Shown: piece by piece, positions 1 through 38,550 of the stretch | Layout: every line of letters starts with the position of its first letter | Position numbering within the stretch: position 1 is the stretch's first letter | NCBI RefSeq assembly: GCF_921293095.1 | Contig: NW_025791716.1 | Location: 1 to 64,000 of the forward strand | Direction: 5' to 3' | DNA from: Ischnura elegans | Taxonomy: Eukaryota; Arthropoda; Insecta; Odonata; Coenagrionidae | Length of the DNA: 64,000 nucleotides | The notes under the pieces: generated by a model | Told to the model about the DNA's origin: nothing | Database searches by the model: none | The model's input: only the letters and a program-made list of their open reading frames with translations | Translations under genes and position numbers: made by a program

Positions 1-648
1 TCCTCGGCCGGGCGGGGAAGGGGCGGAGGGGGGGAGGAAGAGGGGCGGAAGGCCTGGAGGTGAGGTGACATTCCTGGGAGGCATTTTTCTCTTCCCCTCT
101 GCCGCCGCAATTCATGTGTGATTTTGCAAAATTATGTTTGGCGTAGATTATCTTATATGTGGGAAGGCGTTATTTGGATGAAGTGTATAATATTTGATTG
201 GTATTTGTCAACTTACAGGCCACAGCAGCCCCATGAAAACTACTGAAATCGAAAGGATAATGAAACCGTCATTTCAGTGTTGATATTAAAGATTATCCTC
301 TCAGAAAAATGATGCTCTGTTTGAAAATAATGAAATTACAAGTTTAACGTGAGTTTAAGTAAGTGAAGTAACGTGAGAACGATAGAATCTCCTCGTAATA
401 TATTGCCATCAATGGCACTGTTTTCATCATCTTATCTTCTCTTATCGCTCGTTCCATCAATACCTTCAATCTCCTCTGTATCTCATGTAGAAGCTGCCAC
501 TCGTAACCCACCATGTCCTGCACTTCATACCTCCTCGTAACATATTGCCATCTAAAGCACTGTTTGCATCATTCCATCTTCTCTTAGCTCGATATTTCAA
601 ATTCCGCTGTGGACGTCCACGGCGAGCGACTGCGAAAAGGCTCCCCCC

Positions 649-665
649 GCGCCATCTATCCGCGG
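649..665 (-). promoter_or_regulatory. CTCF-like site A, unit 1
   Basis: The site reads GCGCCATCTATCCGCGG on +. Its reverse complement resembles the animal CTCF core, with an AGATGGCGC segment. It is followed about 115 bp later by the conserved TGACATAACGCCGG motif. Confidence 0.4.
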
Positions 666-1505
666 AATCCGAATAACTACTCGATCACTCTTGCAGCGGT
701 AGCCGTCGTGAGAAGACGACGCGAATAATTAATATCAGTTATAATTATTGCATGTTTATCAGCGGTTACTGACATAACGCCGGTTCTATAGTGTTCTTCG
801 TCAGGCGTCGTTGGTTATTCTTAACGTTCCTTTCGTGGGAATGTAATTCCTTTTGTGCTATTTCATTTTTTGTTGGCAGCGGAATAACGTAAATAATTAG
901 GGCAGGGACAACGTTTCATGGTAAGCTGTGATAACTTAACATGTGAATTTAGAAGGGAAGTGTTAGCATAACGAAGCCCAAGGTATGTTATCGGACGTAA
1001 AAGAGGAATTAATTTTGAAACGTCAAAGGCAAACTCACAAACATTTCCCAGATTGTACTGCCCCTTTCAGTAATTGCTTTGCTACAAACATTTCCTTCGC
1101 CAAACGAATATCAGTGGCATCCGTACTTGAAATATTGGTTTAAAATCCCTAGGAAATCGTCGAAATCCACGTAAGACTGCATAATGAGGTACGTTTTGGT
1201 TGATATTTTGAGCTACAAGAGTACTCTATATTCCAATTATGCAAATGTTCACTACATTGTGCTTGAATCATGGCTTAATTAACGATATTATTTGCGAATT
1301 TAAGGCGAGGATTTGGTCGTTCGGTTTGCCTTTGTTGTCGAGAACATTAATAGTTCACGACAATTGACAATCGATGGTTCATTAGGTATGGCAAGGATTC
1401 TCATATTGCCGCTGCGTTGCGAATAATTATCCCAATTGCTTTCCCACGGGCGATTCCAAATTCCCAACTGAGATGCGCTTAGTGGACTGCTGGAGGTTCC
1501 CCCCC

Positions 1506-1522
1506 GCACCATCTAGCGGCGG
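1506..1522 (-). promoter_or_regulatory. CTCF-like site B, unit 1
   Basis: The site reads GCACCATCTAGCGGCGG on +, and the TGACATAACG motif follows about 115 bp downstream. Confidence 0.4.
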
Positions 1523-3958
1523 ATTCTGTATTACTCCTCGATCGCTCTTGCTGCGGCAGCTGTCGTGAGAAGACGTCGCGAGTAATTAATGTCAGTGATA
1601 ATTGTTGCATGTTAACAGCGGTAACTGACATAACGCCGGTTCTGTAGTGTTCTTCGTGACGATCAGCAAACGTGAGGAAAGGAGTGAAAGTGTCTGTGTC
1701 GCTGGATGCATAGGAAAAGTTATTGAAATGTACGGCAATAAGTGTGTTGACAACAGCGATGGCGATTGTGATCCACAGCCGAAGAGCCGAGTAAGTACGC
1801 TATTACTTATTTTCACACTCTTCACATTCATATTCGTTGTCTGTGTTATTTCCTTGGCTTTCTCTTTTGCGTAGAAAAGTAAACTGTGATGTGATTAATA
1901 CACTGTTTGACGGTTGATTGATCCCAGGGTGTAATTGTGCATCGTAAGAAAACAGAAATTAGTCGTGGCGTCCTTAATTGTAACAAGTTGAGTGAATCGT
2001 GGCATAATTTAAAAGTGTTTGCCATTGAATGTGCTAAGACGTTGATGGTTTCCCCCTTGCACTATGTATCTTAGGCAAAGTGCGTTGTTAAAAATGTTGA
2101 CGAAAGAGTTGAAGGAAGAATATTTTTCGCGAATGTTTCCCTTAGCAACTGATTGTTTGGTGTCACAAAATTAACTACGGTAAAGTTTAATTGAAGTGTT
2201 AACGGTGTTACATCGTGGTTGTTTACTCTGCATATGTGAAGTCATGTACATTGGCAGATCCGGATTAATAATAAGTGTAATGCTATGTATTTTGGACCGC
2301 TGTTGTGAAAGCAGTTAGCGATGTTAAATAGTGCACATCGCATTTCCACTGTCAGACGGCGTTGATTATTGTTAAATTTCCTTTCGTCCGAATATAATTC
2401 CTTGTGTGATATTTCATAACTTCTTGGCAGCGAAACTTCATAATTAATTAGGGCAACGATAACATTCCATGGTAATGCTGTGTTAAGTTGACATGTGACT
2501 TGAAAAGCGTAGTGTTAGCATCACGGAGGCCGAAAGAATTTTATCGGATATAGAAAAGGAATTAATTGTAAAACGTAAAATCACAAACGTTTCCTCAGAC
2601 TCGTGAAATTGGAGACCAGCAAAACGCCATTGTCATATGATTGAATGGAAACCGTGAAATGTTGTAAGTAGCGGCACTCATACGCAAGTTTATTTGTGAT
2701 TTTGCAAAATTATGTCCAGCGTTGGTTATCGGAAATGTGTGAACGCATTATGCAAAGCGTCGAAGACTATTTTAAGTCCTCCACACACATTTTTCGCACA
2801 CCGCATGTGTTATGATTTTCGGGAAAAAATGTAAACTGTGCTCTTGCAATGCGTTACTGATTGTTACGAGGTAACCGTAGGGGCTCGAAACTGAAATAGC
2901 TTTCGCCATGGGTGATAATTACTCGATTTCATTACATCAAACTTTTTTATCGCTGGTCTTTCCTGGGAAAGGGAATGAGAAATGTGATTGTTGACGTGCT
3001 AATTATCCTTAGCAACCGGGTGTTTGCTGGTTTCATTGCTGTTGTTTTCAATTGTTTCGACAAGTACGAACGCTGAAGTTGTTGCAACCGATTTGCGTGT
3101 GGGAAGTGTTCCACTACTAATTGCTTGCATTGAAAAATTCTTATTGTTGCGAATTTAGTATCGATAGTAAGTATCGTACGTTTGCGTTTCATTGTCTTTG
3201 ATAGGACGTCGTGCGTTTGATGAGTAACTGTTACAATAAATCTGTAATTGAATTGATGTAATGAATCGTTCACGAAACAACTCCGCGATTAATATATTTC
3301 TCGAATGCATCTGCAAGCTTTGTCCGTTTAACAGATTGCAAGCGTGCCATTACAACGTAAACGAGACATAATGAAAGAAAGAAATTGCGTCCTTCATGTT
3401 CCGGGAGCACAATTTTATCCATCGCATGACACGCAAGTTCGGACGACAGCATTTTGTTTTGCTTTCTCTCCAGGCTCGACACCCCCGATACCGGCTGCCT
3501 AGTCAGTGTGCGTGGTCGAGACTTGCAGGAACTCAATTCGTATGGGAGTGGAAGTGGTCCGCTAGTTATGCACGCGAAAATGAAATGCAATACGCCGAGC
3601 GACGCTCGGTGGTCGGCAGTTAATAGCATTGCCCGGATTTAATTTCCTTCCAGTCAAAATTAACATTCACCAACGATGAGAAATGAGAGAAATGTGCAGG
3701 TTTACAATGATGTGTTTCATGGATTGAATTTATAAGTGATTTTACGTGCGAAACGGACGCAAGCTTTGCGTCTTCGGACGAAAAGGCTATGTGCCATTGC
3801 TGTCATTAATAGTAATCGTTCGAGACAGTCAAGATCCGAGGACTCGACAGCGGATGCATTGGCATTGTTGACCTCGGTCGTAAACAATAGCCGGGGTGCG
3901 CTCTCCCTCGGGGGAATCGAACTTTCAAACTTGTGTTTGAGAAGCGGAGAAGCACGCC

Positions 3959-3975
3959 GCACCATCTAGCGGCGG
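3959..3975 (-). promoter_or_regulatory. CTCF-like site C, unit 1
   Basis: The core is the same as in site B, followed by an extended CGG run. Confidence 0.4.
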
Positions 3976-5912
3976 CGGCGGAACCATACTCGGACAGTTC
4001 GCAGCCAAGTGCGAAATAGGCGACCAGCTAGTTATTAGTTAATTTATGGTATATTAATACGAGACTTAGTCATTCACTAGTAACCGAAGAAGGGGAGAAT
4101 ATCAATAACATTCTCGCTTTTTCTGCATCTCCCTTGCAGACCATTCCTAATTAACATGCTAAAGTAACACAATAGCAAGAATGGTTTCCGATGCAGTGCA
4201 CGAAAAAAAAATTATGTTAGAATTATGGAGTTATGACTAAATTTTATCAAAGTTTTCGGTTCACGAGGGACATCAAAATATTCGGTAGAAATCAGCAAAC
4301 GATTTGGATAAAGTGTATGAAATTGGATTGCTATTTGTCAACTTACAGGCCACAGCAGCCCCATGAAAACTAATAAAATCGAAAGGATAATGAAACTACA
4401 TTCGTTGATATTAAAAGATTTTGCTCTCAGAAAAAAATTATGTTCTGTTTGGAAATAATGAAATTAAAAGTTTAACGTGAGCCGCAGCGAAAGAAATACA
4501 AAATATTGTGAAAAAAATTGCGTGCCTGAAGCATCGAACGTGGGCCCCCGCGCGCGTGGTAGCAACGTACTCTAACAAACTAGTCCAAATCGGATGATAA
4601 AGATGTGGGTAGCACCAACGCCGTAATATTTTATTACTGCAAATAATCAACCTTTATTCTGGAGTCTGAATCCGGTGTTCGATGGCTTTCATCGATTTTT
4701 TTCTCCCGTGTCTTATATGTCTTCGGGAGGCAATTTATATTAAGCAGACAACATTTCCCTATCAATAAAAATTAGCAGGAGGTGCAAAAAGTGGCATTTT
4801 TGATAAGCGAATTCCATGATTTTCCACCGTCGGTTGCTATGTTACGTCGCACGTAACGTTGAAAGAATTAGCGATGCAAAGTTTCCATTATTTGCTGTAC
4901 TCGCGTTACGTCTTGCATTGAAATGTTTAGGTGTAGCAAACAGCCAACAGGAAACCAAATAACTTCGTTACTAAGGGTAACTATATTGTTCAGCGCTCAA
5001 GCGAAACAGTTAAATGTCACGAAAAGCTTACCAAATAATTGAGTTATGCTTTGAAAATCATTGTGGAAGAGACGAGTGTGTTCATTAACATATACTCAAG
5101 GCAGAAGGCACGGAAATTTATTGCTACGGATTAAGTCGTTCCGTGCGTTTTAATAGAATGTAGAGAAATGTGGATTGCCTATTCGTAAGATATTAATTAA
5201 TCGGTTTCTCTCCCCTTTACTGACTAAATGTACGGCTATACTCCGAAACTCTGCGAACTTTTCTCGTGTACTGCGAATATGTACAACTATGGGAGTTCGG
5301 TTTAAGGATAAGTCGTTGACACTGGCAGACAGTGACGATATTACTTATTGAGAAGAGGAAGGATATTTGAACGCAATTTAGGGTGCAATCGAGGAAGGAA
5401 AGTAGACCTGACTACTCACGAGGAATAATTAATTCGGATAAGGAAATTCTTCGATCGCTCGCGAAAGGATGTAATTTCCCGCTTCACTCCGATGGCGAGG
5501 AGACTGGAGAACGATTGTCATTCACCGTGGCATGCAAAAATGTAGTAAGAACTTACGGTACCGTTAGGGAAAATGTAAAATTTAATCGTGGACAACTGCG
5601 GGCAGCAACTCGGGCACGAAACATTTTCAGAGTGGGAAGGAACGGTGACAAACAGTTAAAGGTGTTTACGATAATCCGTGTCCACCACGGCTAAAAATTT
5701 ATTTCGAAGTCACGGGGGACTGCATTGGGAATGATGCATCACATTTTAGAATTTTCTTTCATTCCCGTGATTTAATGAAGGGGAAAATAGGCGCTCTGTG
5801 ATTTTCTCACCCGCGCGGTTACCCGAAGGAATGTTTCTTATTTCAGTAGCCGCCTTTCCGTCGGCCGATGTGCGCAGAGAAAGAGTCTGTGAATCGCCGG
5901 GAGAAGCACGCC

Positions 5913-5929
5913 GCACCATCTAGCGGCGG
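5913..5929 (-). promoter_or_regulatory. CTCF-like site D, unit 1
   Basis: This site has the same core and lies in the duplicate of the module C block. Confidence 0.4.
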
Positions 5930-7659
5930 CGGCGGCGGAACCATACTCGGACAGTTCGCAGCCAAGTGCGAAATAGGCGACCAGCTAGTTATTAGTTAAT
6001 TTATGGTATATTAATACGAGACTCAGTCATTCACTAGTAACCGAAGAAGGGGAGAATATCAATAACATTCTCGCTTTTTCTGCATCTCCCTTGCAGACCA
6101 TTCCTAATTAACATGCTGAAGTAACACAATAGCAAGAATGGTTTCCGATGCAGTGCACGAAAAACAAATTATGTTAGAATTATGGAGTTATGACTAAATT
6201 TATCAAAGTTTTCGGATTGCTCTCTTTCCTATTCTCTCATCTCTGATGTTCACCATAAAACTTACAGCATGTAACGTATTTCGTAGTCCAGAAACCCACG
6301 CCGCACCGTACCGATTTTGGAAAAAAAATTATAATGCAGTACTGGTTGCCTTCTCCTAACTTCAAACTCTAAGGCGATAATATGCTATACCGTCGAGACA
6401 GAAATGTAATTCTTATCTTTGTCAACACCATACAACGTGTGTGTACGACAATCACTTGGTTTCAGATTTTTAATCCCACAATGTACACTAAATTCCTGTC
6501 CTAAGTTTACTCCGAAATGCCACGCCGAGCAGTCGAGATGACGGAAAAAGCCGTTTATTTAACACAAAGTGGCCACCAAGCAATGTTTTACGTGTTATTT
6601 CACATCAACACACATTCTTGAACAAGATGCACAGCAATTCGGATTTTTAAATACCATGTTATTCGGGAAATCCGTGTAAAACTTTGTAGTTGAGTCGTGG
6701 ACGTGAAAGAGTTGTAACGGTGACATTTGAAAAATTTTTCCGACCACTTTAGTACGTGCTGGATGCTTGAAATTCATCCTCAATACGTGTTATGTGGTGC
6801 TCTTTCGGAATCCGAAAGAAAAACGGAGACTTTTGCCATACTTAATGATTTATAAATGAAAGGCGCGTGAATATACGCGAAATGGTGGTTCCAACGACCT
6901 TTTAATAATTTTTAAAAATAGGAAGGATGCGTGCTGGGGTGTCGAAATTCATAGGACATGAGCGTTTAGTAATGCAAATTGCGAATTTAAAAGATACTGG
7001 ACGAAAATCGGCCTAGTAGGAGGGAAAAAAAATGGAAAGTGACGTTTCCAAGTGTCCCAAAGAAAAGTGGGGGGGGGTAATGTTTAAAAAATTCACCGTG
7101 GCCAGAGTTTTGCAGATATTTGAAAAATACCAACGGGGTCGTGTTCCTAAGGCATTTAACTAAAGGTTTTGTGAAAATGGGGTCGAAATTCGGAAGGAGT
7201 AAAATTTGCGCACTTGTCTTCCGTCGAGTAAAAAAACCGAGTGCGCCGCTGTTGTGAACTAACTCGATTTTTTGGATGACTCGATGTTCGAAGTACAGTA
7301 CTGCGTTTGGGGTACTTCCCGAGCAGGTAAAAATCTGAAACCGGTGTCGTTCGTTCGGGGAAGGTGCTCGAAAGGTAATTGCGTCGGGAAATGGTGTGAA
7401 AAAAAATTATTTCAGGAGATTTAGAAGGGGAGATATAAATACCTTCATAAGGTGACCGCTGAAGACGTAAAAGTCGCCTCCGGCGGGTTGCGGTTGGCGT
7501 GAAAAATACATGTCCGAGTGATTTTGGGAGAGGAGAATACCGGCCGTAATGCCTCAAATGTGAATTCGGTATGCGAGGAGCGGTTGTTTGGATTAAGGTC
7601 GTCGAAATTTTTTGTAAACGATATGTGGTTGGAGGCTGACATCACTCGGTGAGAGTGAA

Positions 7660-7802
7660 TGGGGGGGGGGGACGACTTTTTGCCGGTATGGCTACAGAAT
7701 TTTTGGAAATTCCCGGCTCCTGGGACCGTGGGATGCTGTCGTCCTCGGCCGGGCGGGGAAGGGCGGAGGGGGGGAGGAAGAGGGGCGGAAGGCCTGGAGG
7801 TG
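7660..7802 (+). promoter_or_regulatory. G-rich tract with quadruplex potential (reference unit boundary)
   Basis: An 11-base G run is followed after about 80 bp by a purine-rich stretch with at least four closely spaced runs of three or more G on the + strand (about 7750-7790). This fits a standard G-quadruplex pattern. The tract recurs at every unit boundary (about 15377-15519, 23095-23237 and 30812-30954), and its right part starts the window. The G run alternates 11, 10, 11, 10 between successive units. Folding or function is inference. Confidence 0.5.
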
Positions 7803-7856
7803 AGGTGACATTCCTGGGAGGCATTTTTCTCTTCCCCTCTGCCGCCGCAATTCATG

Positions 7857-8093
7857 TGTGATTTTGCAAAATTATGTTTGGCGTAGATTATCTTAAATGC
7901 GGGAAGGCGTTATTTGGATGAAGTGTATAATATTTGATTGGTATTTGTCAACTTACAGGCCACAGCAGCCCCATGAAAACTACTGAAATCGAAAGGATAA
8001 TGAAACCGTCATTTCAGTGTTGATATTAAAGATTATCCTCTCAGAAAAATGATGCTCTGTTTGAAAATAATGAAATTACAAGTTTAACGTGAG
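7857..8093 (+). repeat. Internal duplicated block a, first copy
   Basis: Positions 7914-8093 are clearly similar to 12033-12206 in the same unit. The most conserved part runs from TTTGTCAACTTACAG to CATGAAAACTA and is almost unchanged, and it contains a splice-acceptor-like end followed by a methionine codon. The first 60 bp (7857-7920) are in turn similar to 10429-10490. The reading frames after the ATG differ between copies, so coding is not supported. Confidence 0.7.
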
Positions 8094-8387
8094 TTTAAGT
8101 AAGTGAAGTAACGTGAGAACGATAGAATCTCCTCGTAATATATTGCCATCAATGGCACTGTTTTCATCATCTTATCTTCTCTTATCGCTCGTTCCATCAA
8201 TACCTTCAATCTCCTCTGTATCTCATGTAGAAGCTGCCACTCGTAACCCACCATGTCCTGCACTTCATACCTCCTCGTAACATATTGCCATCTAAAGCAC
8301 TGTTTGCATCATTCCATCTTCTCTTAGCTCGATATTTCAAATTCCGCTGTGGACGTCCACGGCGAGCGACTGCGAAAAGGCTCCCCC

Positions 8388-8404
8388 GCGCCATCTATCG
8401 GCGG
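8388..8404 (-). promoter_or_regulatory. CTCF-like site A, unit 2
   Basis: The site reads GCGCCATCTATCGGCGG on +. In the complementary direction it contains AGATGGCGC, the core typical of fly and vertebrate CTCF sites. It sits in a conserved frame: a C-rich run before it, then CTCGATC, GTGAGAAGACG and, about 119 bp on, GACATAACGCCGGTT. Binding is inferred from motif similarity only; a YY1/PHO-type factor (CCAT core) is an alternative. Confidence 0.45.
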
Positions 8405-8539
8405 AATCCGAATAACTACTCGATCACTCTTGCAGCGGTAGCCGTCGTGAGAAGACGACGCGAATAATTAATATCAGTTATAATTATTGCATGTTTATCA
8501 GCGGTTACTGACATAACGCCGGTTCTATAGTGTTCTTCG

Positions 8540-8795
8540 TCAGGCGTCGTTGGTTATTCTTAACGTTCCTTTCGTGGGAATGTAATTCCTTTTGTGCTAT
8601 TTCATTTTTTGTTGGCAGCGGAATAACGGAAATAATTAGGGCAGGGACAACGTTTCATGGTAAGCTGTGATAACTTAACATGTGAATTTAGAAGGGAAGT
8701 GTTAGCATAACGAAGCCCAAGGTATGTTATCGGACGTAAAAGAGGAATTAATTTTGAAACGTCAAAGGCAAACTCACAAACATTTCCCAGATTGT
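8540..8795 (+). repeat. Internal duplicated block p1
   Basis: This block is similar along its length to 10085-10330 of the same unit. It shares strings such as AATTAGGGCA, TTAGCAT and GGAATTAATT in the same order. It follows module A directly. A 63-codon ATG frame (8724-8912) overlaps it, but the paralogue is out of frame there, so I do not call a gene. Confidence 0.6.
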
Positions 8796-9242
8796 ACTGC
8801 CCCTTTCAGTAATTGCTTTGCTACAACATTTCCTTCGCCAAACGAATATCAGTGGCATCCGTACTTGAAATATTGGTTTAAAATCCCTAGGAAATCGTCG
8901 AAATCCACGTAAGACTGCATAATGAGGTACGTTTTGGTTGATATTTTGAGCTACAAGAGTACTCTATATTCCAATTATGCAAATGTTCACTACATTGTGC
9001 TTGAATCATGGCTTAATTAACGATATTATTTGCGAATTTAAGGCGAGGATTTGGTCGTTCGGTTTGCCTTTGTTGTCGAGAACATTAATAGTTCACGACA
9101 ATTGACAATCGATGGTTCATTAGGTATGGCAAGGATTCTCATATTGCCGCTGCGTTGCGAATAATTATCCCAATTGCTTTCCCACGGGCGATTCCAAATT
9201 CCCAACTGAGATGCGCTTAGTGGACTGCTGGAGGTTCCCCCC

Positions 9243-9259
9243 GCACCATCTAGCGGCGG
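9243..9259 (-). promoter_or_regulatory. CTCF-like site B, unit 2
   Basis: The site reads GCACCATCTAGCGGCGG on +. The flanks are paralogous to site A over about 150 bp, including GTGAGAAGACG and the downstream TGACATAACGCCGG at about 9363. Confidence 0.45.
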
Positions 9260-9464
9260 ATTCTGTATTACTCCTCGATCGCTCTTGCTGCGGCAGCTGT
9301 CGTGAGAAGACGTCGCGAGTAATTAATGTCAGTGATAATTGTTGCATGTTAACAGCGGTAACTGACATAACGCCGGTTCTGTAGTGTTCTTCGTGACGAT
9401 CAGCAAACGTGAGGAAAGGAGTGAAAGTGTCTGTGTCGCTGGATGCATAGGAAAAGTTATTGAA

Positions 9465-9909
9465 ATGTACGGCAATAAGTGTGTTGACAACAGCGATGGC
9501 GATTGTGATCCACAGCCGAAGAGCCGAGTAAGTACGCTATTACTTATTTTCACACTCTTCACATTCATATTCGTTGTCTGTGTTATTCCTTGGCTTTCTC
9601 TTTTGCGTAGAAAAGTAAACTGTGATGTGATTAATACACTGTTTGACGGTTGATTGATCCCAGGGTGTAATTGTGCATCGTAAGAAAACAGAAATTAGTC
9701 GTGGCGTCCTTAATTGTAACAAGTTGAGTGAATCGTGGCATAATTTAAAAGTGTTTGCCATTGAATGTGCTAAGACGTTGATGGTTTCCCCTTGCACTAT
9801 GTATCTTAGGCAAAGTGCGTTGTTAAAAATGTTGACGAAAGAGTTGAAGGAAGAATATTTTTCGCGAATGTTTCCCTTAGCAACTGATTGTTTGGTGTCA
9901 CAAAATTAA
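9465..9909 (+). other. Possible two-exon small reading frame (tentative)
   Basis: An ATG at 9465 opens 21 codons (MYGNKCVDNSDG...) that end exactly at a strong donor, GTAAGT, at 9528. A CCCAG acceptor at 9659-9663 restores the same phase into 81 further codons ending in TAA at 9907-9909, giving about 102 residues. The product is Cys- and Lys-rich and I recognise no domain. A second acceptor with a much better pyrimidine tract ends at 9610 and would give an early stop. Copies lie at 17182-17626, 24900-25344 and 32617-33061; the unit 1 copy is frameshifted. Open frames of this length arise by chance in 7.7 kb, so confidence is low. Confidence 0.18.
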
Positions 9910-10084
9910 CTACGGTAAAGTTTAATTGAAGTGTTAACGGTGTTACATCGTGGTTGTTTACTCTGCATATGTGAAGTCATGTACATTGGCAGATCCGGAT
10001 TAATAATAAGTGTAATGCTATGTATTTGGACCGCTGTTGTGAAAGCAGTTAGCGATGTTAAATAGTGCACATCGCATTTCCACT

Positions 10085-10330
10085 GTCAGACGGCGTTGAT
10101 TATTGTTAAATTTCCTTTCGTCCGAATATAATTCCTTGTGTGATATTTCATAACTTCTTGGCAGCGAAACTTCATAATTAATTAGGGCAACGATAACATT
10201 CCATGGTAATGCTGTGTTAAGTTGACATGTGACTTGAAAAGCGTAGTGTTAGCATCACGGAGGCCGAAAGAATTTTATCGGATATAGAAAAGGAATTAAT
10301 TGTAAAACGTAAAATCACAAACGTTTCCTC
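10085..10330 (+). repeat. Internal duplicated block p2
   Basis: This is the paralogue of 8540-8795, more diverged than the block a pair. It shows the unit was assembled by older internal duplications before the 7.7 kb amplification. Confidence 0.6.
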
Positions 10331-11673: not shown

Positions 11674-11986
11674 GGAGAAGCACGCCGCACCATCTAGCGG
11701 CGGCGGCGGAACCATACTCGGACAGTTCGCAGCCAAGTGCGAAATAGGCGACCAGCTAGTTATTAGTTAATTTATGGTATATTAATACGAGACTTAGTCA
11801 TTCACTAGTAACCGAAGAAGGGGAGAATATCAATAACATTCTCGCTTTTTCTGCATCTCCCTTGCAGACCATTCCTAATTAACATGCTAAAGTAACACAA
11901 TAGCAAGAATGGTTTCCGATGCAGTGCACGAAAAAAAAATTATGTTAGAATTATGGAGTTATGACTAAATTTATCAAAGTTTTCGG
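11674..11986 (+). repeat. Module C duplication block
   Basis: This block is nearly identical to 13618-13933 of the same unit, apart from one CGG triplet and a few bases. It begins just before the CTCF-like site and ends in TTTTCGG. It includes an acceptor-like CTCCCTTGCAG at about 11870. The two copies lie about 1.94 kb apart, so each full unit carries the block twice. Confidence 0.85.
11687..11703 (-). promoter_or_regulatory. CTCF-like site C, unit 2
   Basis: The site reads GCACCATCTAGCGGCGG on +. The downstream flank is unlike that of A and B and lacks the TGACATAACG motif, so only the core is shared. Confidence 0.45.
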
Positions 11987-12032
11987 TTCACGAGGGACAT
12001 CAAAATATTCGGTAGAAATCAGCAAACGATTT

Positions 12033-19403: not shown

Positions 19404-19420
19404 GCACCATCTAGCGGCGG
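19404..19420 (-). promoter_or_regulatory. CTCF-like site C, unit 3
   Basis: The core is identical to site C of unit 2. Confidence 0.4.
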
Positions 19421-21347: not shown

Positions 21348-21364
21348 GCACCATCTAGCGGCGG
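21348..21364 (-). promoter_or_regulatory. CTCF-like site D, unit 3
   Basis: The core is identical to site D of unit 2. Confidence 0.4.
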
Positions 21365-23822: not shown

Positions 23823-23839
23823 GCGCCATCTATCGGCGG
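23823..23839 (-). promoter_or_regulatory. CTCF-like site A, unit 4
   Basis: This is the TATCGGC variant, as in units 2 and 5. Confidence 0.4.
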
Positions 23840-24677
23840 AATCCGAATAACTACTCGATCACTCTTGCAGCGGTAGCCGTCGTGAGAAGACGACGCGAAT
23901 AATTAATATCAGTTATAATTATTGCATGTTTATCAGCGGTTACTGACATAACGCCGGTTCTATAGTGTTCTTCGTCAGGCGTCGTTGGTTATTCTTAACG
24001 TTCCTTTCGTGGGAATGTAATTCCTTTTGTGCTATTTCATTTTTTGTTGGCAGCGGAATAACGGAAATAATTAGGGCAGGGACAACGTTTCATGGTAAGC
24101 TGTGATAACTTAACATGTGAATTTAGAAGGGAAGTGTTAGCATAACGAAGCCCAAGGTATGTTATCGGACGTAAAAGAGGAATTAATTTTGAAACGTCAA
24201 AGGCAAACTCACAAACATTTCCCAGATTGTACTGCCCCTTTCAGTAATTGCTTTGCTACAACATTTCCTTCGCCAAACGAATATCAGTGGCATCCGTACT
24301 TGAAATATTGGTTTAAAATCCCTAGGAAATCGTCGAAATCCACGTAAGACTGCATAATGAGGTACGTTTTGGTTGATATTTTGAGCTACAAGAGTACTCT
24401 ATATTCCAATTATGCAAATGTTCACTACATTGTGCTTGAATCATGGCTTAATTAACGATATTATTTGCGAATTTAAGGCGAGGATTTGGTCGTTCGGTTT
24501 GCCTTTGTTGTCGAGAACATTAATAGTTCACGACAATTGACAATCGATGGTTCATTAGGTATGGCAAGGATTCTCATATTGCCGCTGCGTTGCGAATAAT
24601 TATCCCAATTGCTTTCCCACGGGCGATTCCAAATTCCCAACTGAGATGCGCTTAGTGGACTGCTGGAGGTTCCCCCC

Positions 24678-24694
24678 GCACCATCTAGCGGCGG
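24678..24694 (-). promoter_or_regulatory. CTCF-like site B, unit 4
   Basis: The core is identical to site B of unit 2. Confidence 0.4.
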
Positions 24695-27121
24695 ATTCTG
24701 TATTACTCCTCGATCGCTCTTGCTGCGGCAGCTGTCGTGAGAAGACGTCGCGAGTAATTAATGTCAGTGATAATTGTTGCATGTTAACAGCGGTAACTGA
24801 CATAACGCCGGTTCTGTAGTGTTCTTCGTGACGATCAGCAAACGTGAGGAAAGGAGTGAAAGTGTCTGTGTCGCTGGATGCATAGGAAAAGTTATTGAAA
24901 TGTACGGCAATAAGTGTGTTGACAACAGCGATGGCGATTGTGATCCACAGCCGAAGAGCCGAGTAAGTACGCTATTACTTATTTTCACACTCTTCACATT
25001 CATATTCGTTGTCTGTGTTATTCCTTGGCTTTCTCTTTTGCGTAGAAAAGTAAACTGTGATGTGATTAATACACTGTTTGACGGTTGATTGATCCCAGGG
25101 TGTAATTGTGCATCGTAAGAAAACAGAAATTAGTCGTGGCGTCCTTAATTGTAACAAGTTGAGTGAATCGTGGCATAATTTAAAAGTGTTTGCCATTGAA
25201 TGTGCTAAGACGTTGATGGTTTCCCCTTGCACTATGTATCTTAGGCAAAGTGCGTTGTTAAAAATGTTGACGAAAGAGTTGAAGGAAGAATATTTTTCGC
25301 GAATGTTTCCCTTAGCAACTGATTGTTTGGTGTCACAAAATTAACTACGGTAAAGTTTAATTGAAGTGTTAACGGTGTTACATCGTGGTTGTTTACTCTG
25401 CATATGTGAAGTCATGTACATTGGCAGATCCGGATTAATAATAAGTGTAATGCTATGTATTTGGACCGCTGTTGTGAAAGCAGTTAGCGATGTTAAATAG
25501 TGCACATCGCATTTCCACTGTCAGACGGCGTTGATTATTGTTAAATTTCCTTTCGTCCGAATATAATTCCTTGTGTGATATTTCATAACTTCTTGGCAGC
25601 GAAACTTCATAATTAATTAGGGCAACGATAACATTCCATGGTAATGCTGTGTTAAGTTGACATGTGACTTGAAAAGCGTAGTGTTAGCATCACGGAGGCC
25701 GAAAGAATTTTATCGGATATAGAAAAGGAATTAATTGTAAAACGTAAAATCACAAACGTTTCCTCAGACTCGTGAAATTGGAGACCAGCAAAACGCCATT
25801 GTCATATGATTGAATGGAAACCGTGAAATGTTGTAAGTAGCGGCACTCATACGCAAGTTTATTTGTGATTTTGCAAAATTATGTCCAGCGTTGGTTATCG
25901 GAAATGTGTGAACGCATTATGCAAAGCGTCGAAGACTATTTTAAGTCCTCCACACACATTTTCGCACACCGCATGTGTTATGATTTTCGGGAAAAAATGT
26001 AAACTGTGCTCTTGCAATGCGTTACTGATTGTTACGAGGTAACCGTAGGGGCTCGAAACTGAAATAGCTTTCGCCATGGGTGATAATTACTCGATTTCAT
26101 TACATCAAACTTTTTTATCGCTGGTCTTTCCTGGGAAAGGGAATGAGAAATGTGATTGTTGACGTGCTAATTATCCTTAGCAACCGGGTGTTTGCTGGTT
26201 TCATTGCTGTTGTTTTCAATTGTTTCGACAAGTACGAACGCTGAAGTTGTTGCACCGATTTGCGTGTGGGAAGTGTTCCACTACTAATTGCTTGCATTGA
26301 AAAATTCTTATTGTTGCGAATTTAGTATCGATAGTAAGTATCGTACGTTTGCGTTTCATTGTCTTTGATAGGACGTCGTGCGTTTGATGAGTAACTGTTA
26401 CAATAAATCTGTAATTGAATTGATGTAATGAATCGTTCACGAAACAACTCCGCGATTAATATATTTCTCGAATGCATCTGCAAGCTTTGTCCGTTTAACA
26501 GATTGCAAGCGTGCCATTACAACGTAAACGAGACATAATGAAAGAAAGAAATTGCGTCCTTCATGTTCCGGGAGCACAATTTTATCCATCGCATGACACG
26601 CAAGTTCGGACGACAGCATTTTGTTTTGCTTTTCTCCAGGCTCGACACCCCCGATACCGGCTGCCTAGTCAGTGTGCGTGTCGAGACTTGCAGGAACTCA
26701 ATTCGTATGGGAGTGGAAGTGGTCCGCTAGTTATGCACGCGAAAATGAAATGCAATACGCCGAGCGACGCTCGGTGGTCGGCAGTTAATAGCATTGCCCG
26801 GATTTAATTTCCTTCAGTCAAAATTAACATTCACCAACGATGAGAAATGAGAGAAATGTGCAGGTTTACAATGATGTGTTCATGGATTGAATTTATAAGT
26901 GATTTTACGTGCGAAACGGACGCAAGCTTTGCGTCTTCGGACGAAAAGGCTATGTGCCATTGCTGTCATTAATAGTAATCGTTCGAGACAGTCAAGATCC
27001 GAGGACTCGACAGCGGATGCATTGGCATTGTTGACCTCGGTCGTAAACAATAGCCGGGGTGCGCTCTCCCTCGGGGGAATCGAACTTTCAAACTTGTGTT
27101 TGAGAAGCGGAGAAGCACGCC

Positions 27122-27138
27122 GCACCATCTAGCGGCGG
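27122..27138 (-). promoter_or_regulatory. CTCF-like site C, unit 4
   Basis: The core is identical to site C of unit 2. Confidence 0.4.
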
Positions 27139-29065
27139 CGGCGGAACCATACTCGGACAGTTCGCAGCCAAGTGCGAAATAGGCGACCAGCTAGTTATTA
27201 GTTAATTTATGGTATATTAATACGAGACTTAGTCATTCACTAGTAACCGAAGAAGGGGAGAATATCAATAACATTCTCGCTTTTTCTGCATCTCCCTTGC
27301 AGACCATTCCTAATTAACATGCTAAAGTAACACAATAGCAAGAATGGTTTCCGATGCAGTGCACGAAAAAAAAATTATGTTAGAATTATGGAGTTATGAC
27401 TAAATTTATCAAAGTTTTCGGTTCACGAGGGACATCAAAATATTCGGTAGAAATCAGCAAACGATTTGGATAAAGTGTATGAAATTGGATTGCTATTTGT
27501 CAACTTACAGGCCACAGCAGCCCCATGAAAACTAATAAAATCGAAAGGATAATGAAACTACATTCGTTGATATTAAAGATTTTGCTCTCAGAAAAAATTA
27601 TGTTCTGTTTGGAAATAATGAAATTAAAAGTTTAACGTGAGCCGCAGCGAAAGAAATACAAAATATTGTGAAAAAAATTGCGTGCCTGAAGCATCGAACG
27701 TGGGCCCCGCGCGCGTGGTAGCAACGTACTCTAACAACTAGTCCAAATCGGATGATAAAGATGTGGGTAGCACCAACGCCGTAATATTTTATTACTGCAA
27801 ATAATCAACCTTTATTCTGGAGTCTGAATCCGGTGTTCGATGGCTTTCATCGATTTTTTTCTCCCGTGTCTTATATGTCTTCGGGAGGCAATTTATATTA
27901 AGCAGACAACATTTCCCTATCAATAAAAATTAGCAGGAGGTGCAAAAAGTGGCATTTTTGATAAGCGAATTCCATGATTTTCCACCGTCGGTTGCTATGT
28001 TACGTCGCACGTAACGTTGAAAGAATTAGCGATGCAAAGTTTCCATTATTTGCTGTACTCGCGTTACGTCTTGCATTGAAATGTTTAGGTGTAGCAAACA
28101 GCCAACAGGAAACCAAATAACTTCGTTACTAAGGGTAACTATATTGTTCAGCGCTCAAGCGAAACAGTTAAATGTCACGAAAAGCTTACCAAATAATTGA
28201 GTTATGCTTTGAAAATCATTGTGGAAGAGACGAGTGTGTTCATTAACATATACTCAAGGCAGAAGGCACGGAAATTTATTGCTACGGATTAAGTCGTTCC
28301 GTGCGTTTTAATAGAATGTAGAGAAATGTGGATTGCCTATTCGTAAGATATTAATTAATCGGTTCTCTCCCTTTACTGACTAAATGTACGGCTATACTCC
28401 GAAACTCTGCGAACTTTTCTCGTGTACTGCGAATATGTACAACTATGGGAGTTCGGTTTAAGGATAAGTCGTTGACACTGGCAGACAGTGACGATATTAC
28501 TTATTGAGAAGAGGAAGGATATTTGACGCAATTAGGGTGCAATCGAGGAAGGAAAGTAGACCTGACTACTCACGAGGAATAATTAATTCGGATAAGGAAA
28601 TTCTTCGATCGCTCGCGAAAGGATGTAATTTCCGCTTCACTCCGATGGCGAGGAGACTGGAGAACGATTGTCATTCGCCGTGGCATGCAAAAATGTAGTA
28701 AGAACTTACGGTACCGTTAGGGAAAATGTAAAATTTAATCGTGGACAACTGCGGGCAGCAACTCGGGCACGAAACATTTTCAGAGTGGGAAGGAACGGTG
28801 ACAAACAGTTAAAGGTGTTTACGATAATCCGTGTCCACCACGGCTAAAAATTTATTTCGAAGTCACGGGGGACTGCATTGGGAATGATGCATCACATTTT
28901 AGAATTTTCTTTCATTCCCGTGATTTAATGAAGGGGAAAATAGGCGCTCTGTGATTTTCTCACCCGCGCGGTTACCCGAAGGAATGTTTCTTATTTCAGT
29001 AGCCGCCTTTCCGTCGGCCGATGTGCGCAGAGAAAGAGTCTGTGAATCGCCGGGAGAAGCACGCC

Positions 29066-29082
29066 GCACCATCTAGCGGCGG
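29066..29082 (-). promoter_or_regulatory. CTCF-like site D, unit 4
   Basis: The core is identical to site D of unit 2. Confidence 0.4.
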
Positions 29083-31539
29083 CGGCGGCGGAACCATACT
29101 CGGACAGTTCGCAGCCAAGTGCGAAATAGGCGACCAGCTAGTTATTAGTTGATTTATGGTATATTAATACGAGACTCAGTCATTCACTAGTAACCGAAGA
29201 AGGGGAGAATATCAATAACATTCTCGCTTTTTCTGCATCTCCCTTGCAGACCATTCCTAATTAACATGCTGAAGTAACACAATAGCAAGAATGGTTTCCG
29301 ATGCAGTGCACGAAAAACAAATTATGTTAGAATTATGGAGTTATGACTAAATTTATCAAAGTTTTCGGATTGCTCTCTTTCCTATTCTCTCATCTCTGAT
29401 GTTCACCATAAAACTTACAGCATGTAACGTATTTCGTAGTCCAGAAACCCACGCCGCACCGTACCGATTTTGGAAAAAAAATTATAATGCAGTACTGGTT
29501 GCCTTCTCCTAACTTCAAACTCTAAGGCGATAATATGCTATACCGTCGAGACAGAAATGTAATTCTTATCTTTGTCAACACCATACAACGTGTGTGTACG
29601 ACAATCACTTGGTTTCAGATTTTTAATCCCACAATGTACACTAAATTCCTGTCCTAAGTTTACTCCGAAATGCCACGCCGAGCAGTCGAGATGACGGAAA
29701 AAGCCGTTTATTTAACACAAAGTGGCCACCAAGCAATGTTTTACGTGTTATTTCACATCAACACACATTCTTGAACAAGATGCACAGCAATTCGGATTTT
29801 TAAATACCATGTTATTCGGGAAATCCGTGTAAAACTTTGTAGTTGAGTCGTGGACGTGAAAGAGTTGTAACGGTGACATTTGAAAAATTTTTCCGACCAC
29901 TTTAGTACGTGCTGGATGCTTGAAATTCATCCTCAATACGTGTTATGTGGTGCTCTTTCGGAATCCGAAAGAAAAACGGAGACTTTTGCCATACTTAATG
30001 ATTTATAAATGAAAGGCGCGTGAATATACGCGAAATGGTGGTTCCAACGACCTTTTAATAATTTTTAAAAATAGGAAGGATGCGTGCTGGGGTGTCGAAA
30101 TTCATAGGACATGAGCGTTTAGTAATGCAAATTGCGAATTTAAAAGATACTGGACGAAAATCGGCCTAGTAGGAGGGAAAAAAAATGGAAAGTGACGTTT
30201 CCAAGTGTCCCAAAGAAAAGTGGGGGGGGGTAATGTTTAAAAAATTCACCGTGGCCAGAGTTTTGCAGATATTTGAAAAATACCAACGGGGTCGTGTTCC
30301 TAAGGCATTTAACTAAAGGTTTTGTGAAAATGGGGTCGAAATTCGGAAGGAGTAAAATTTGCGCACTTGTCTTCCGTCGAGTAAAAAAACCGAGTGCGCC
30401 GCTGTTGTGAACTAACTCGATTTTTTGGATGACTCGATGTTCGAAGTACAGTACTGCGTTTGGGGTACTTCCCGAGCAGGTAAAAATCTGAAACCGGTGT
30501 CGTTCGTTCGGGGAAGGTGCTCGAAAGGTAATTGCGTCGGGAAATGGTGTGAAAAAAAATTATTTCAGGAGATTTAGAAGGGGAGATATAAATACCTTCA
30601 TAAGGTGACCGCTGAAGACGTAAAAGTCGCCTCCGGCGGGTTGCGGTTGGCGTGAAAAATACATGTCCGAGTGATTTTGGGAGAGGAGAATACCGGCCGT
30701 AATGCCTCAAATGTGAATTCGGTATGCGAGGAGCGGTTGTTTGGATTAAGGTCGTCGAAATTTTTTGTAAACGATATGTGGTTGGAGGCTGACATCACTC
30801 GGTGAGAGTGAATGGGGGGGGGGACGACTTTTTGCCGGTATGGCTACAGAATTTTTGGAAATTCCCGGCTCCTGGGACCGTGGGATGCTGTCGTCCTCGG
30901 CCGGGCGGGGACGGGCGGAGGGGGGGAGGAAGAGGGGCGGAAGGCCTGGAGGTGAGGTGACATTCCTGGGAGGCATTTTTCTCTTCCCCTCTGCCGCCGC
31001 AATTCATGTGTGATTTTGCAAAATTATGTTTGGCGTAGATTATCTTAAATGCGGGAAGGCGTTATTTGGATGAAGTGTATAATATTTGATTGGTATTTGT
31101 CAACTTACAGGCCACAGCAGCCCCATGAAAACTACTGAAATCGAAAGGATAATGAAACCGTCATTTCAGTGTTGATATTAAAGATTATCCTCTCAGAAAA
31201 ATGATGCTCTGTTTGAAAATAATGAAATTACAAGTTTAACGTGAGTTTAAGTAAGTGAAGTAACGTGAGAACGATAGAATCTCCTCGTAATATATTGCCA
31301 TCAATGGCACTGTTTTCATCATCTTATCTTCTCTTATCGCTCGTTCCATCAATACCTTCAATCTCCTCTGTATCTCATGTAGAAGCTGCCACTCGTAACC
31401 CACCATGTCCTGCACTTCATACCTCCTCGTAACATATTGCCATCTAAAGCACTGTTTGCATCATTCCATCTTCTCTTAGCTCGATATTTCAAATTCCGCT
31501 GTGGACGTCCACGGCGAGCGACTGCGAAAAGGCTCCCCC

Positions 31540-31556
31540 GCGCCATCTATCGGCGG
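31540..31556 (-). promoter_or_regulatory. CTCF-like site A, unit 5
   Basis: This is the TATCGGC variant, with the same flanks as in unit 2. Confidence 0.4.
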
Positions 31557-32394
31557 AATCCGAATAACTACTCGATCACTCTTGCAGCGGTAGCCGTCGT
31601 GAGAAGACGACGCGAATAATTAATATCAGTTATAATTATTGCATGTTTATCAGCGGTTACTGACATAACGCCGGTTCTATAGTGTTCTTCGTCAGGCGTC
31701 GTTGGTTATTCTTAACGTTCCTTTCGTGGGAATGTAATTCCTTTTGTGCTATTTCATTTTTTGTTGGCAGCGGAATAACGGAAATAATTAGGGCAGGGAC
31801 AACGTTTCATGGTAAGCTGTGATAACTTAACATGTGAATTTAGAAGGGAAGTGTTAGCATAACGAAGCCCAAGGTATGTTATCGGACGTAAAAGAGGAAT
31901 TAATTTTGAAACGTCAAAGGCAAACTCACAAACATTTCCCAGATTGTACTGCCCCTTTCAGTAATTGCTTTGCTACAACATTTCCTTCGCCAAACGAATA
32001 TCAGTGGCATCCGTACTTGAAATATTGGTTTAAAATCCCTAGGAAATCGTCGAAATCCACGTAAGACTGCATAATGAGGTACGTTTTGGTTGATATTTTG
32101 AGCTACAAGAGTACTCTATATTCCAATTATGCAAATGTTCACTACATTGTGCTTGAATCATGGCTTAATTAACGATATTATTTGCGAATTTAAGGCGAGG
32201 ATTTGGTCGTTCGGTTTGCCTTTGTTGTCGAGAACATTAATAGTTCACGACAATTGACAATCGATGGTTCATTAGGTATGGCAAGGATTCTCATATTGCC
32301 GCTGCGTTGCGAATAATTATCCCAATTGCTTTCCCACGGGCGATTCCAAATTCCCAACTGAGATGCGCTTAGTGGACTGCTGGAGGTTCCCCCC

Positions 32395-32411
32395 GCACCA
32401 TCTAGCGGCGG
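32395..32411 (-). promoter_or_regulatory. CTCF-like site B, unit 5
   Basis: The core is identical to site B of unit 2. It is the last array-type site before the array ends. Confidence 0.4.
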
Positions 32412-34819
32412 ATTCTGTATTACTCCTCGATCGCTCTTGCTGCGGCAGCTGTCGTGAGAAGACGTCGCGAGTAATTAATGTCAGTGATAATTGTTGCATG
32501 TTAACAGCGGTAACTGACATAACGCCGGTTCTGTAGTGTTCTTCGTGACGATCAGCAAACGTGAGGAAAGGAGTGAAAGTGTCTGTGTCGCTGGATGCAT
32601 AGGAAAAGTTATTGAAATGTACGGCAATAAGTGTGTTGACAACAGCGATGGCGATTGTGATCCACAGCCGAAGAGCCGAGTAAGTACGCTATTACTTATT
32701 TTCACACTCTTCACATTCATATTCGTTGTCTGTGTTATTCCTTGGCTTTCTCTTTTGCGTAGAAAAGTAAACTGTGATGTGATTAATACACTGTTTGACG
32801 GTTGATTGATCCCAGGGTGTAATTGTGCATCGTAAGAAAACAGAAATTAGTCGTGGCGTCCTTAATTGTAACAAGTTGAGTGAATCGTGGCATAATTTAA
32901 AAGTGTTTGCCATTGAATGTGCTAAGACGTTGATGGTTTCCCCTTGCACTATGTATCTTAGGCAAAGTGCGTTGTTAAAAATGTTGACGAAAGAGTTGAA
33001 GGAAGAATATTTTTCGCGAATGTTTCCCTTAGCAACTGATTGTTTGGTGTCACAAAATTAACTACGGTAAAGTTTAATTGAAGTGTTAACGGTGTTACAT
33101 CGTGGTTGTTTACTCTGCATATGTGAAGTCATGTACATTGGCAGATCCGGATTAATAATAAGTGTAATGCTATGTATTTGGACCGCTGTTGTGAAAGCAG
33201 TTAGCGATGTTAAATAGTGCACATCGCATTTCCACTGTCAGACGGCGTTGATTATTGTTAAATTTCCTTTCGTCCGAATATAATTCCTTGTGTGATATTT
33301 CATAACTTCTTGGCAGCGAAACTTCATAATTAATTAGGGCAACGATAACATTCCATGGTAATGCTGTGTTAAGTTGACATGTGACTTGAAAAGCGTAGTG
33401 TTAGCATCACGGAGGCCGAAAGAATTTTATCGGATATAGAAAAGGAATTAATTGTAAAACGTAAAATCACAAACGTTTCCTCAGACTCGTGAAATTGGAG
33501 ACCAGCAAAACGCCATTGTCATATGATTGAATGGAAACCGTGAAATGTTGTAAGTAGCGGCACTCATACGCAAGTTTATTTGTGATTTTGCAAAATTATG
33601 TCCAGCGTTGGTTATCGGAAATGTGTGAACGCATTGTGCAAAGCGTCGAAGACTCTTTTAAGTCCTCCACACACATTTTCGCACACCGCATGTGTTATGA
33701 TTTTCGGGAAAAAATGTAAACTGTGCTCTTGCAATGCGTTACTGATTGTTACGAGGTAACCGTAGGGGCTCGAAACTGAAATAGCTTTCGCCATGGGTGA
33801 TAATTACTCGATTTCATTACATCAAACTTTTTTATCGCTGGTCTTTCCTGGGAAAGGGAATGAGAAATGTGATTGTTGACGTGCTAATTATCCTTAGCAA
33901 CCGGGTGTTTGCTGGTTTCATTGCTGTTGTTTTCAATTGTTTCGACAAGTACGAACGCTGAAGTTGTTGCACCGATTTGCGTGTGGGAAGTGTTCCACTA
34001 CTAATTGCTTGCATTGAAAAATTCTTATTGTTGCGAATTTAGTATCGATAGTAAGTATCGTACGTTTGCGTTTCATTGTCTTTGATAGGACGTCGTGCGT
34101 TTGATGAGTAACTGTTACAATAAATCTGTAATTGAATTGATGTAATGAATCGTTCACGAAACAACTCCGCGATTAATATATTTCTCGAATGCATCTGCAA
34201 GCTTTGTCCGTTTAACCGATTGCAAGCGTGCCATTACAACGTAAACGAGACATAATGAAAGAAAGAAATTGCGTCCTTCATGTTCCGGGAGCACAATTTT
34301 ATCCATCGCATGACACGCAAGTTCGGACGACAGCATTTTGTTTTGCTTTTCTCCAGGCTCGACACCCCCGATACCGGCTGCCTAGTCAGTGTGCGTGTCG
34401 AGACTTGCAGGAACTCAATTCGTATGGGAGTGGAAGTGGTCCGCTAGTTATGCACGCGAAAATGAAATGCAATACGCCGAGCGACGCTCGGTGGTCGGCA
34501 GTTAATAGCATTGCCCGGATTTAATTTCCTTCAGTCAAAATTAACATTCACCAACGATGAGAAATGAGAGAAATGTGCAGGTTTACAATGATGTGTTCAT
34601 GGATTGAATTTATAAGTGATTTTACGTGCGAAACGGACGCAAGCTTTGCGTCTTCGGACGAAAAGGCTATGTGCCATTGCTGTCATTAATAGTAATCGTT
34701 CGAGACAGTCAAGATCGGAGGACTCGACAGCGGATGCATTGGCATTGTTGACCTCGGTCGTAAACAATAGCCGGGGTGCGCTCTCCCTCGGGGGAATCGA
34801 ACTTTCAAACTTGTGTTTG

Positions 34820-37300: not shown

Positions 37301-38550
<1,250 letters not shown>

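What the first reader, a model, noticed from the sequence alone, without database searches (positions are those of the whole stretch)
1..34819. Macrosatellite with evenly recurring, same-orientation CTCF-like sites
Each complete unit carries four copies of a CCATCTAGCGGC-type core, 18 in the array, every one on the same strand. The reverse complement resembles the fly and vertebrate CTCF core. Known CTCF-rich macrosatellites such as mammalian DXZ4 act as chromatin boundaries; I know of no described equivalent in an insect-like genome. Motif and orientation are seen directly; binding and boundary function are inference.
Basis: partly seen in the sequence, partly recalled or inferred. Interest (0 to 1): 0.75.

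Follow-up and report, generated by a model that had tools for sequence, protein, structure and literature searches.

The report
CTCF-like sites in histone-5S spacer DNA
A damselfly repeat block that looked like a stand-alone boundary satellite is multiplied spacer DNA from the animal's histone and 5S ribosomal gene cluster, and its same-facing CTCF-like sites also recur in the intact gene repeats, though nobody has yet shown that anything binds them.

Summary
Window 1-34819 holds four full and one partial 7.7 kb units with 18 CCATCTAGCGGC-type cores (13 exact, 3 with one mismatch, 2 with two), all on +. With a human CTCF matrix (recalled), 16 of 18 pass p<=1e-5, all facing one way; Markov sequence gives 0.37 hits on average.

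What it is changes. The genome matches Ischnura elegans in size, scaffold number and longest scaffold. The units are amplified spacer of a linked histone-5S rRNA array: 31273-35272 is 97% colinear with spacer beside an intact 5S gene, and a frameshifted H3, an H4 and a truncated 5S gene follow. The same sites recur at set distances in histone/5S repeats on other contigs; 56 of 56 testable listed sites lie opposite the 5S strand.

So it is not a free-standing DXZ4 equivalent. CTCF binding is plausible, unproven; insulation is inference. The exact 12-mer also sits in two dispersed repeat families (21 of 27 chromosomal sites in a non-random sample), and only 11 of those 27 pass the matrix. Uniform orientation may simply be inherited. 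Functional precedent: the non-CTCF sns5 insulator of sea urchin histone repeats.

The parts
1..34819 (+). Tandem array of amplified histone/5S spacer: units 1-7741, 7742-15458, 15459-23176, 23177-30893, partial 30894-34819
   Evidence: colinearity with spacer beside an intact 5S gene
652..663 (+). CTCF-like core, variant CCATCTATCCGC (fails the matrix threshold); same variant at 16108-16119
1509..1520 (+). CTCF-like core, exact; repeated at 9246, 16963, 24681, 32398
3962..3973 (+). CTCF-like core, exact; repeated at 11690, 19407, 27125
5916..5927 (+). CTCF-like core, exact, in a 316 bp duplicate of the 3962 module (97.8%); repeated at 13634, 21351, 29069
8391..8402 (+). CTCF-like core, variant CCATCTATCGGC; repeated at 23826 and 31543
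34869..34880 (+). CTCF-like core at the array's right edge, equivalent to the site about 1.2 kb beyond the 5S gene in intact repeats; weaker here (10.9 bits against 15.2 beside five intact 5S genes)
35886..35909 (-). 5S rRNA gene remnant: first 24 nt of the intact gene
37491..37535 (-). Histone 3' stem-loop of H4 (25.6 bits, below gathering score)
37590..37901 (-). Histone H4 open frame, 103 aa
38082..38552 (+). Histone H3, frameshifted near its C-terminus; the other C74 hits and those on C60 and C97 end at the same profile position (111 of 122), so the damage looks shared rather than a local assembly error
41369..41380 (+). CTCF-like core CCATCTGTCGGC (16.1 bits); the same form recurs on the histone/5S contigs
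42453..42464 (+). CTCF-like core, exact (12.7 bits)
42958..42969 (+). CTCF-like core CCATCTGGCGGC (16.2 bits)
43264..43368 (-). Diverged 5S-like sequence (30.2 bits, below gathering score; 83% over 70 nt)
43690..43701 (+). CTCF-like core CCATCTGGCGGC (12.3 bits, just under the 1e-5 threshold)

Best explanation
The array is a secondary tandem amplification of the intergenic spacer of a linked histone (H1, H2A/H2B-like, H3, H4) plus 5S rRNA array, in a decayed stretch of that locus. SHOWN: the colinearity, the gene remnants, and the recurrence of the sites at set distances and orientation in repeats with intact genes. INFERRED, about 55% likely: the sites are bound by the damselfly CTCF orthologue. 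INFERRED, about 35%: in the working repeats, bound CTCF acts as a one-way insulator or cohesin stop in each spacer. That would keep the Pol III 5S gene and the Pol II histone genes of one repeat apart from the next, and keep the locus open. The multiplied copies in this window would be passengers, or extra edge insulation.
For: Window 31273-35272 is 97% identical and colinear with spacer next to the intact 5S gene of C73; 34596-36350 matches the surroundings of four further intact 5S genes at 88-93%; 37477-38821 matches the H3/H4 region of two repeats with full-length H3 hits at 95%. On contigs numbered C27 and above (lengths seen: 44-346 kb for C57, C73, C74, C97) lie 38 of 47 scored 5S genes, 34 full-length H3-type hits and 36 of 37 linker-histone hits. 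Motif sites recur about 1.2, 5.3 and 7.3-8.0 kb beyond the 5S 3' end; 16 of the 19 scored 5S genes on contigs with listed sites have the first of these; 56 of 56 sites on those 12 contigs lie on the strand opposite 5S. Seven sites beside five intact 5S genes score 15.1-15.4 bits. The CTCF consensus CCRSYAGRKGGCRS is 3.1 times commoner genome-wide than its reversed control (1779 against 572). Ten diverged module pairs average 70% identity in flanks and 92.5% in the core. One dispersed family pairs the same 12-mer with an 8-of-9 match to the vertebrate CTCF upstream motif in 12 of 12 sampled sites. CTCF was found in transcript libraries of 105 species, nearly all arthropods (PMC5094011, passages).
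Against: No binding, expression or Hi-C data. Two searches did not resolve a CTCF orthologue among the many zinc-finger genes. Repeats evolve in concert and the modules descend from one another, so uniform orientation and recurrence do not prove selection. The pairs are non-independent (10 of 13 detectable, of 21 possible among seven modules; the 43690 module was left out) and the modules were first chosen by their core. Flank searches also found partial flank copies with no core (seven of one 5'-flank duplicate, five inverted 5'-flank copies at 87436-87999, one 27-base match at 97071, one junction at 102362). Most sites carry T where the CTCF matrix wants C (TGGTG) and reach about half the maximum score. 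The upstream motif is absent at all ten window sites tested (4-5 of 9 matches, the level of random sequence). Only 11 of 27 sampled chromosomal copies of the 12-mer pass the matrix, so the 12-mer alone is not a strong CTCF site. Intact repeats were scanned with the matrix only in the pieces held; there, two loci show one hit in the opposite orientation (13.5 bits), inside the H1 coding frame. Two of the five 652/8391-type sites are disrupted.
Confidence: 0.55

Rival explanations
1. Inert passengers: the core belongs to an old duplicated spacer module, spread and kept uniform by unequal exchange and gene conversion. No protein uses it; orientation is inherited.
For: Modules are homologous to one another. 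Units 2-4 are 99.9% identical, hence young. The seven C74 histone hits are truncated, carry stops or (the window's) are frameshifted. Partial flank copies without a core exist.
Against: The core is better kept than its flanks in diverged modules (92.5% against 70%, 10 pairs). The same core sits in unrelated repeat families and at six places without flank similarity to the rest of the sample, which shared descent within the spacer does not explain.
Confidence: 0.3
2. A different factor reads the motif: a YY1/PHO-like protein (CCAT core) or a member of this genome's expanded zinc-finger family, acting as spacer promoter, silencer or replication fork barrier.
For: 177 and 331 C2H2 zinc-finger matches, those listed nearly all on C13, C14, C16 and C17. 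Eight of nine modules share a TACT block 9-14 bp 3' of the core (read), and the CTCF upstream motif is absent there.
Against: Most array sites read ACCATCTAG, not the GCCAT of YY1/PHO (recalled). The CTCF matrix and the genome-wide consensus excess fit CTCF.
Confidence: 0.15
3. One reading: a stand-alone CTCF macrosatellite that forms a chromosome-scale boundary, as DXZ4 does.
For: Unit length in the macrosatellite range, CpG-rich (CpG o/e 1.29 against 0.79 in 123 kb of chromosomal loci that I had fetched), one-way CTCF-like sites; site spacing on C60 implies a second array of at least four units.
Against: Units are spacer of a gene array, and the sites are equally regular in repeats with intact genes. 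The contig's chromosomal place is unknown.
Confidence: 0.08

Closest known systems
Linked histone-5S rRNA tandem repeats (grasshoppers, beetles, Mytilus, Potamopyrgus; PMC11354594 and PMC8382920, passages)
   Same: Histone genes and 5S interleaved or co-localised in one array
   Different: CTCF-like sites in the spacers, and amplification of the spacer alone; the passages seen mention neither
sns5 insulator of the sea urchin early histone repeats (PMC3784565, passages)
   Same: A candidate insulator element inside every histone repeat; its sns fragment is reported as directional
   Different: sns5 has no CTCF-type site and is bound by CMPl; here activity is untested
DXZ4 macrosatellite (PMC3218863, passages; PMC5899087, start of abstract in listing)
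   Same: Tandem, CpG-rich, a CTCF-type site in each unit
   Different: Here the units are gene-array spacer with four sites each; X linkage, binding and boundary role unknown
CTCF sites carried by transposons (mammalian SINEs, recalled)
   Same: The same 12-mer is dispersed in two repeat families in this genome
   Different: Window sites share no flanking similarity with those families

Membership tests
CTCF binding site | Match to core matrix / consensus | tested here: met
   16 of 18 array sites p<=1e-5 with recalled MA0139.1; one consensus position (C to T) off in most
CTCF binding site | Upstream motif TGCAATCCC near the core (found at about 6000 of 48137 vertebrate sites, PMC10287918, passages; so not required) | tested here: not met
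   10 of 10 window sites only 4-5 of 9 matches at gaps of 3-12 nt, as in random sequence
CTCF binding site | Occupancy in vivo | not testable with these tools
   No ChIP or CUT&RUN
CTCF binding site | CTCF gene in this genome | tested here: inconclusive
   Searches (126 of 1969 candidates scored; 150 of 2707 scored) swamped by other zinc-finger genes
Linked histone-5S array | Histone genes and 5S regularly interleaved in repeats | tested here: met
   on contigs C27 and above
Linked histone-5S array | This window carries a complete working repeat | tested here: not met
   H3 frameshifted, 5S truncated, no H1, H2A or H2B hit on C74
DXZ4-type macrosatellite | Tandem array of kilobase-sized units | tested here: met
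   7717-7718 bp
DXZ4-type macrosatellite | Free-standing array confined to one or two chromosomal places | tested here: not met
   Not free-standing: spacer of a gene array. Unit pieces recur on C57, C73, C97 and elsewhere on C74 (11 of 1823 candidates scored); site spacing implies an array on C60. Number of chromosomal places unknown
DXZ4-type macrosatellite | CTCF-bound chromatin boundary | not testable with these tools
   No Hi-C or binding data
sns5-type histone-repeat insulator | Lies within the histone repeat | tested here: met
sns5-type histone-repeat insulator | Directional enhancer-blocking activity | not testable with these tools
   Needs a reporter assay

The most novel reading that the evidence does not exclude
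Every histone/5S repeat of this damselfly carries several co-oriented CTCF sites in its spacer. The whole multigene locus would then be a polarised ladder of cohesin stops that separates Pol III 5S from Pol II histone transcription and steadies repeat number, and the 7.7 kb array would be that insulating spacer amplified on its own at a decayed part of the locus.
Probability: 0.2. Interest if true: 0.75.

Novelty: new variant of a known kind. Interest (0 to 1): 0.5.

Why it matters
Histone and 5S genes must be strongly and separately expressed from tandem repeats. Co-oriented CTCF-like sites in their spacers would be a natural test bed for directional insulation and cohesin stalling in an early-branching winged insect. 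Published Hi-C reads exist for this assembly (ERR6688440, listed in PMC9975421). The one within-repeat histone insulator that I met in the papers is the non-CTCF sns5 of sea urchins, and a search for papers naming CTCF, 5S rRNA genes and histone gene cluster together returned 0.

Tried and rejected
Protein-coding reading of the array: no open frame of 150 aa or more inside it. Of the eight such frames beyond it, six were sent to Pfam; one matched histone, five nothing. tRNA: none. Rfam at gathering score: none; weak 5S and histone stem-loop at a looser threshold in 1-46000. 'Ordinary transposon' as source of the array sites: rejected, no flank similarity to the two dispersed families. Finding the CTCF gene: failed, swamped by zinc-finger arrays. 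Upstream CTCF motif at window sites: absent. Drosophila histone-locus screen (PMC10515271, passages): CTCF and CP190 were candidates; CP190 did not pass; the passages seen do not state CTCF's result.

Limits of counts: genome searches score only the best candidates and list about the first 100-160 places, so histone, 5S and unit counts are lower bounds. The strand test uses 56 of the 81 sites listed on contigs C27 and above (25 on C57 and C60 dropped, because no 5S gene was scored there), out of 228 genome-wide. The 128 unlisted sites follow C69 in listing order, so I infer that they too lie on such contigs. That these contigs are unplaced is inferred from the published assembly (99.55% in 14 chromosomes). 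The reversed-pattern controls carry more fixed CpG than the patterns; with CpG o/e 0.79 in the fetched chromosomal DNA (not a random sample) I estimate this biases them by tens of per cent at most, not by the 40-fold or 3-fold seen. The matrix was scanned only over C74:1-114000 and the loci named. Changes made at the checking stage: one search added; 11-of-27, opposite-orientation hit and core-less flank copies added; odds left as they were, since these points cut both ways.
Full report
Check of the observation. The window begins with a tandem array, 1-34819, of 7717-7718 bp units: four full copies and one partial, 99.44-99.96% identical. Within it lie 18 cores of the CCATCTAGCGGC type, all on +: 13 exact, 3 with one mismatch and 2 with two; none on the other strand. 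Against the human CTCF matrix MA0139.1 (recalled, not from a call), 16 of 18 pass p<=1e-5, all in one orientation, while 30 first-order Markov sequences of the same length gave 0.37 hits on average and at most 1. Scores are moderate, 15.1-15.4 bits of a possible 29.5; most sites read TGGTG where the matrix prefers TGGCG. The cores at 652 and 16108 have lost a key base. Five further same-strand sites lie just beyond the stated range.

Which genome. The window is the first 64 kb of contig C74 (346,480 bp) of a 1,722,721,009-base assembly in 110 contigs, in which C1 has 170,575,982 bases. This agrees with the published Ischnura elegans assembly ioIscEleg1.1: 1,723 Mb, 110 scaffolds, longest 170.6 Mb (PMC9975421, passages). 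That C74 is unplaced is inferred from its size.

What lies beside the array. To its right are an H4 open frame (37590-37901, -) with a histone 3' stem-loop below gathering score, a divergent H3 (38082-38552, +) whose C-terminus is frameshifted, the first 24 nt of a 5S gene (35886-35909, -) and a diverged 5S-like stretch (43264-43368, -). The histone family search found seven hits on C74; all seven, and those on C60 and C97, end at profile position 111 of 122, as the window's frameshifted copy does, and the others are truncated or carry stops. This suggests one spreading pseudogene lineage. No linker-histone hit lies on C74 (0 of 37).

The intact locus. In the same genome, 38 of 47 scored 5S genes, 34 full-length H3-type hits (counted from its list) and 36 of 37 linker-histone hits lie interleaved on contigs C27 and above: a linked histone-5S array, of a kind known in other animals (PMC11354594, PMC8382920, passages). 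From C73 and C28 the order reads: spacer with sites, 5S (-), an H2A/H2B-type divergent pair, H3 (+), H1 (-); H4 lies beside H3 by the match of L053 and L054 to the window. Which of the pair is H2A or H2B was not determined. The window's last array unit runs colinearly, at 97%, into the spacer beside the intact 5S gene of C73, and 34596-36350 matches the surroundings of four other intact 5S genes at 88-93%. So the 'macrosatellite' is native histone/5S spacer, multiplied. Site spacing of 7715-7718 on C60 implies a second such array of at least four units with four sites each (its sequence was not fetched). Other pieces lie on C57, C73 and C97 and further along C74 (only 11 of 1823 candidates were scored, so chromosomal copies are not excluded).

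The sites in intact repeats. The pattern CRCCATCTRKCGGCRG occurs 228 times (139+89) against 1 for its reversed form. Of the 100 places listed, 19 are on contigs C1-C19 and 81 on C27 and above. On the 12 of these contigs that also have a scored 5S gene, 56 of 56 sites lie on the strand opposite 5S. They sit about 1.2, 5.3 and 7.3-8.0 kb beyond the 5S 3' end; 16 of 19 scored 5S genes there have the 1.2 kb site, and the three without it are 104.1-bit variant copies on C46. Sites beside five intact 5S genes score 15.1-15.4 bits. Against strict one-way order: in two loci around intact H3 genes the matrix also finds one hit of 13.5 bits in the opposite orientation; it lies in the H1 coding frame, so probably reflects coding sequence.

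Is it CTCF? For: matrix score; a threefold genome-wide excess of the CTCF consensus CCRSYAGRKGGCRS over its reversed control (1779 against 572); recurrence of the same 12-mer in unrelated contexts (27 chromosomal sites at 23 loci: 12 in one family whose copies often lie in pairs about 4.65 kb apart, as LTRs would; 9 in a second family; 6 without flank similarity to the rest; sample not random); in the first family, an 8-of-9 match to the vertebrate upstream motif, TGCAATTCC, 7 nt before the 12-mer in 12 of 12 sites, reached once in 5000 random sequences, though the copies share descent and so count as one event; and CTCF in transcript libraries of 105 species (PMC5094011, passages). Against: no binding data; the orthologue was not resolved; the upstream motif is absent at all ten window sites tested; and of the 27 chromosomal copies only 11 (the second family plus two others) pass the matrix, the first family failing. 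Diverged modules keep the core (92.5%) better than the flanks (70%) in 10 pairs (seven modules, 21 pairs, 13 detectable, 10 under 85%). When homologues were recruited by flanks alone, full flank copies had the core, but partial flank copies without one also turned up. The pairs are not independent and the modules were first chosen by their core, so this is suggestive only.

How it may work. If bound, co-oriented CTCF in each spacer could act as a one-way stop for cohesin and as an insulator between a Pol III 5S gene and Pol II histone genes, with amplified spacer at a decayed stretch as passenger or added edge. The anatomy is shown; binding and function are inferred. Uniform orientation by itself is no evidence, since tandem duplication hands orientation down. 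The sea urchin sns5 element shows that histone repeats can carry an insulator in each unit, with a different protein, CMPl (PMC3784565, passages).

Verdict. Real and regular, but not a free-standing DXZ4 analogue. It is a new variant of a known kind: linked histone-5S repeats whose spacers carry co-oriented CTCF-like sites. Searches for this in print: 10 of 27 papers listed; 12 of 66; 7 of 7; 4 of 4; 1 of 1; 0; none of the titles and abstract starts listed showed it, and only open-licence papers are held.

Noticed in passing
L014, L015, L016, L019 (pairs about 4.65 kb apart); L004, L007, L017, L018: A repeat family carries the 12-mer, twice per element as in paired LTRs, with TGCAATTCC 7 nt before it in CTCF orientation (12 of 12 sites; 8 of 9 match to the reported CTCF upstream motif), although its core falls below the matrix threshold. 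It may spread CTCF sites through this genome.
   Followed up: partly
L001, L005, L006, L008, L022, L023, L024, L026, L028: A second dispersed family (84-96% identical) carries the same core; 9 of 9 sites pass the CTCF matrix (13.9-18.0 bits).
   Followed up: partly
G000 contigs C13, C14, C16, C17: Very many long C2H2 zinc-finger open frames concentrated on four contigs: a large local expansion.
   Followed up: no
window 46556-64000, and on to about C74:86545: Nested satellites: about 345 bp (46556-47576, 49368-50384), about 693 bp (51438-54243), 361 bp (57641-58561), 144 bp (61466 on), the last inside repeats of about 5.5-5.8 kb.
   Followed up: partly
window 38578-50238 and C74:102362-114000: Longer-order repeat of C74, 98.7% identical, offset 63,784 bp.
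   Followed up: partly
window 6215-6724 (and 13933, 21650, 29368): A 510 bp segment in each full unit is 98.8% identical to 55713-56222: an inserted or shared repeat.
   Followed up: no
9-14 bp 3' of the core in eight of nine modules of C74: A TACT block accompanies the core (read from the alignment); meaning unknown.
   Followed up: no
window 1-7741: The first unit differs from the others by 23-24 gap openings, probably error at the contig end.
   Followed up: partly
G000:C27:351936-372333: C27 holds H1, 5S and three sites beyond 350 kb; it may contain the edge of the histone/5S array.
   Followed up: no
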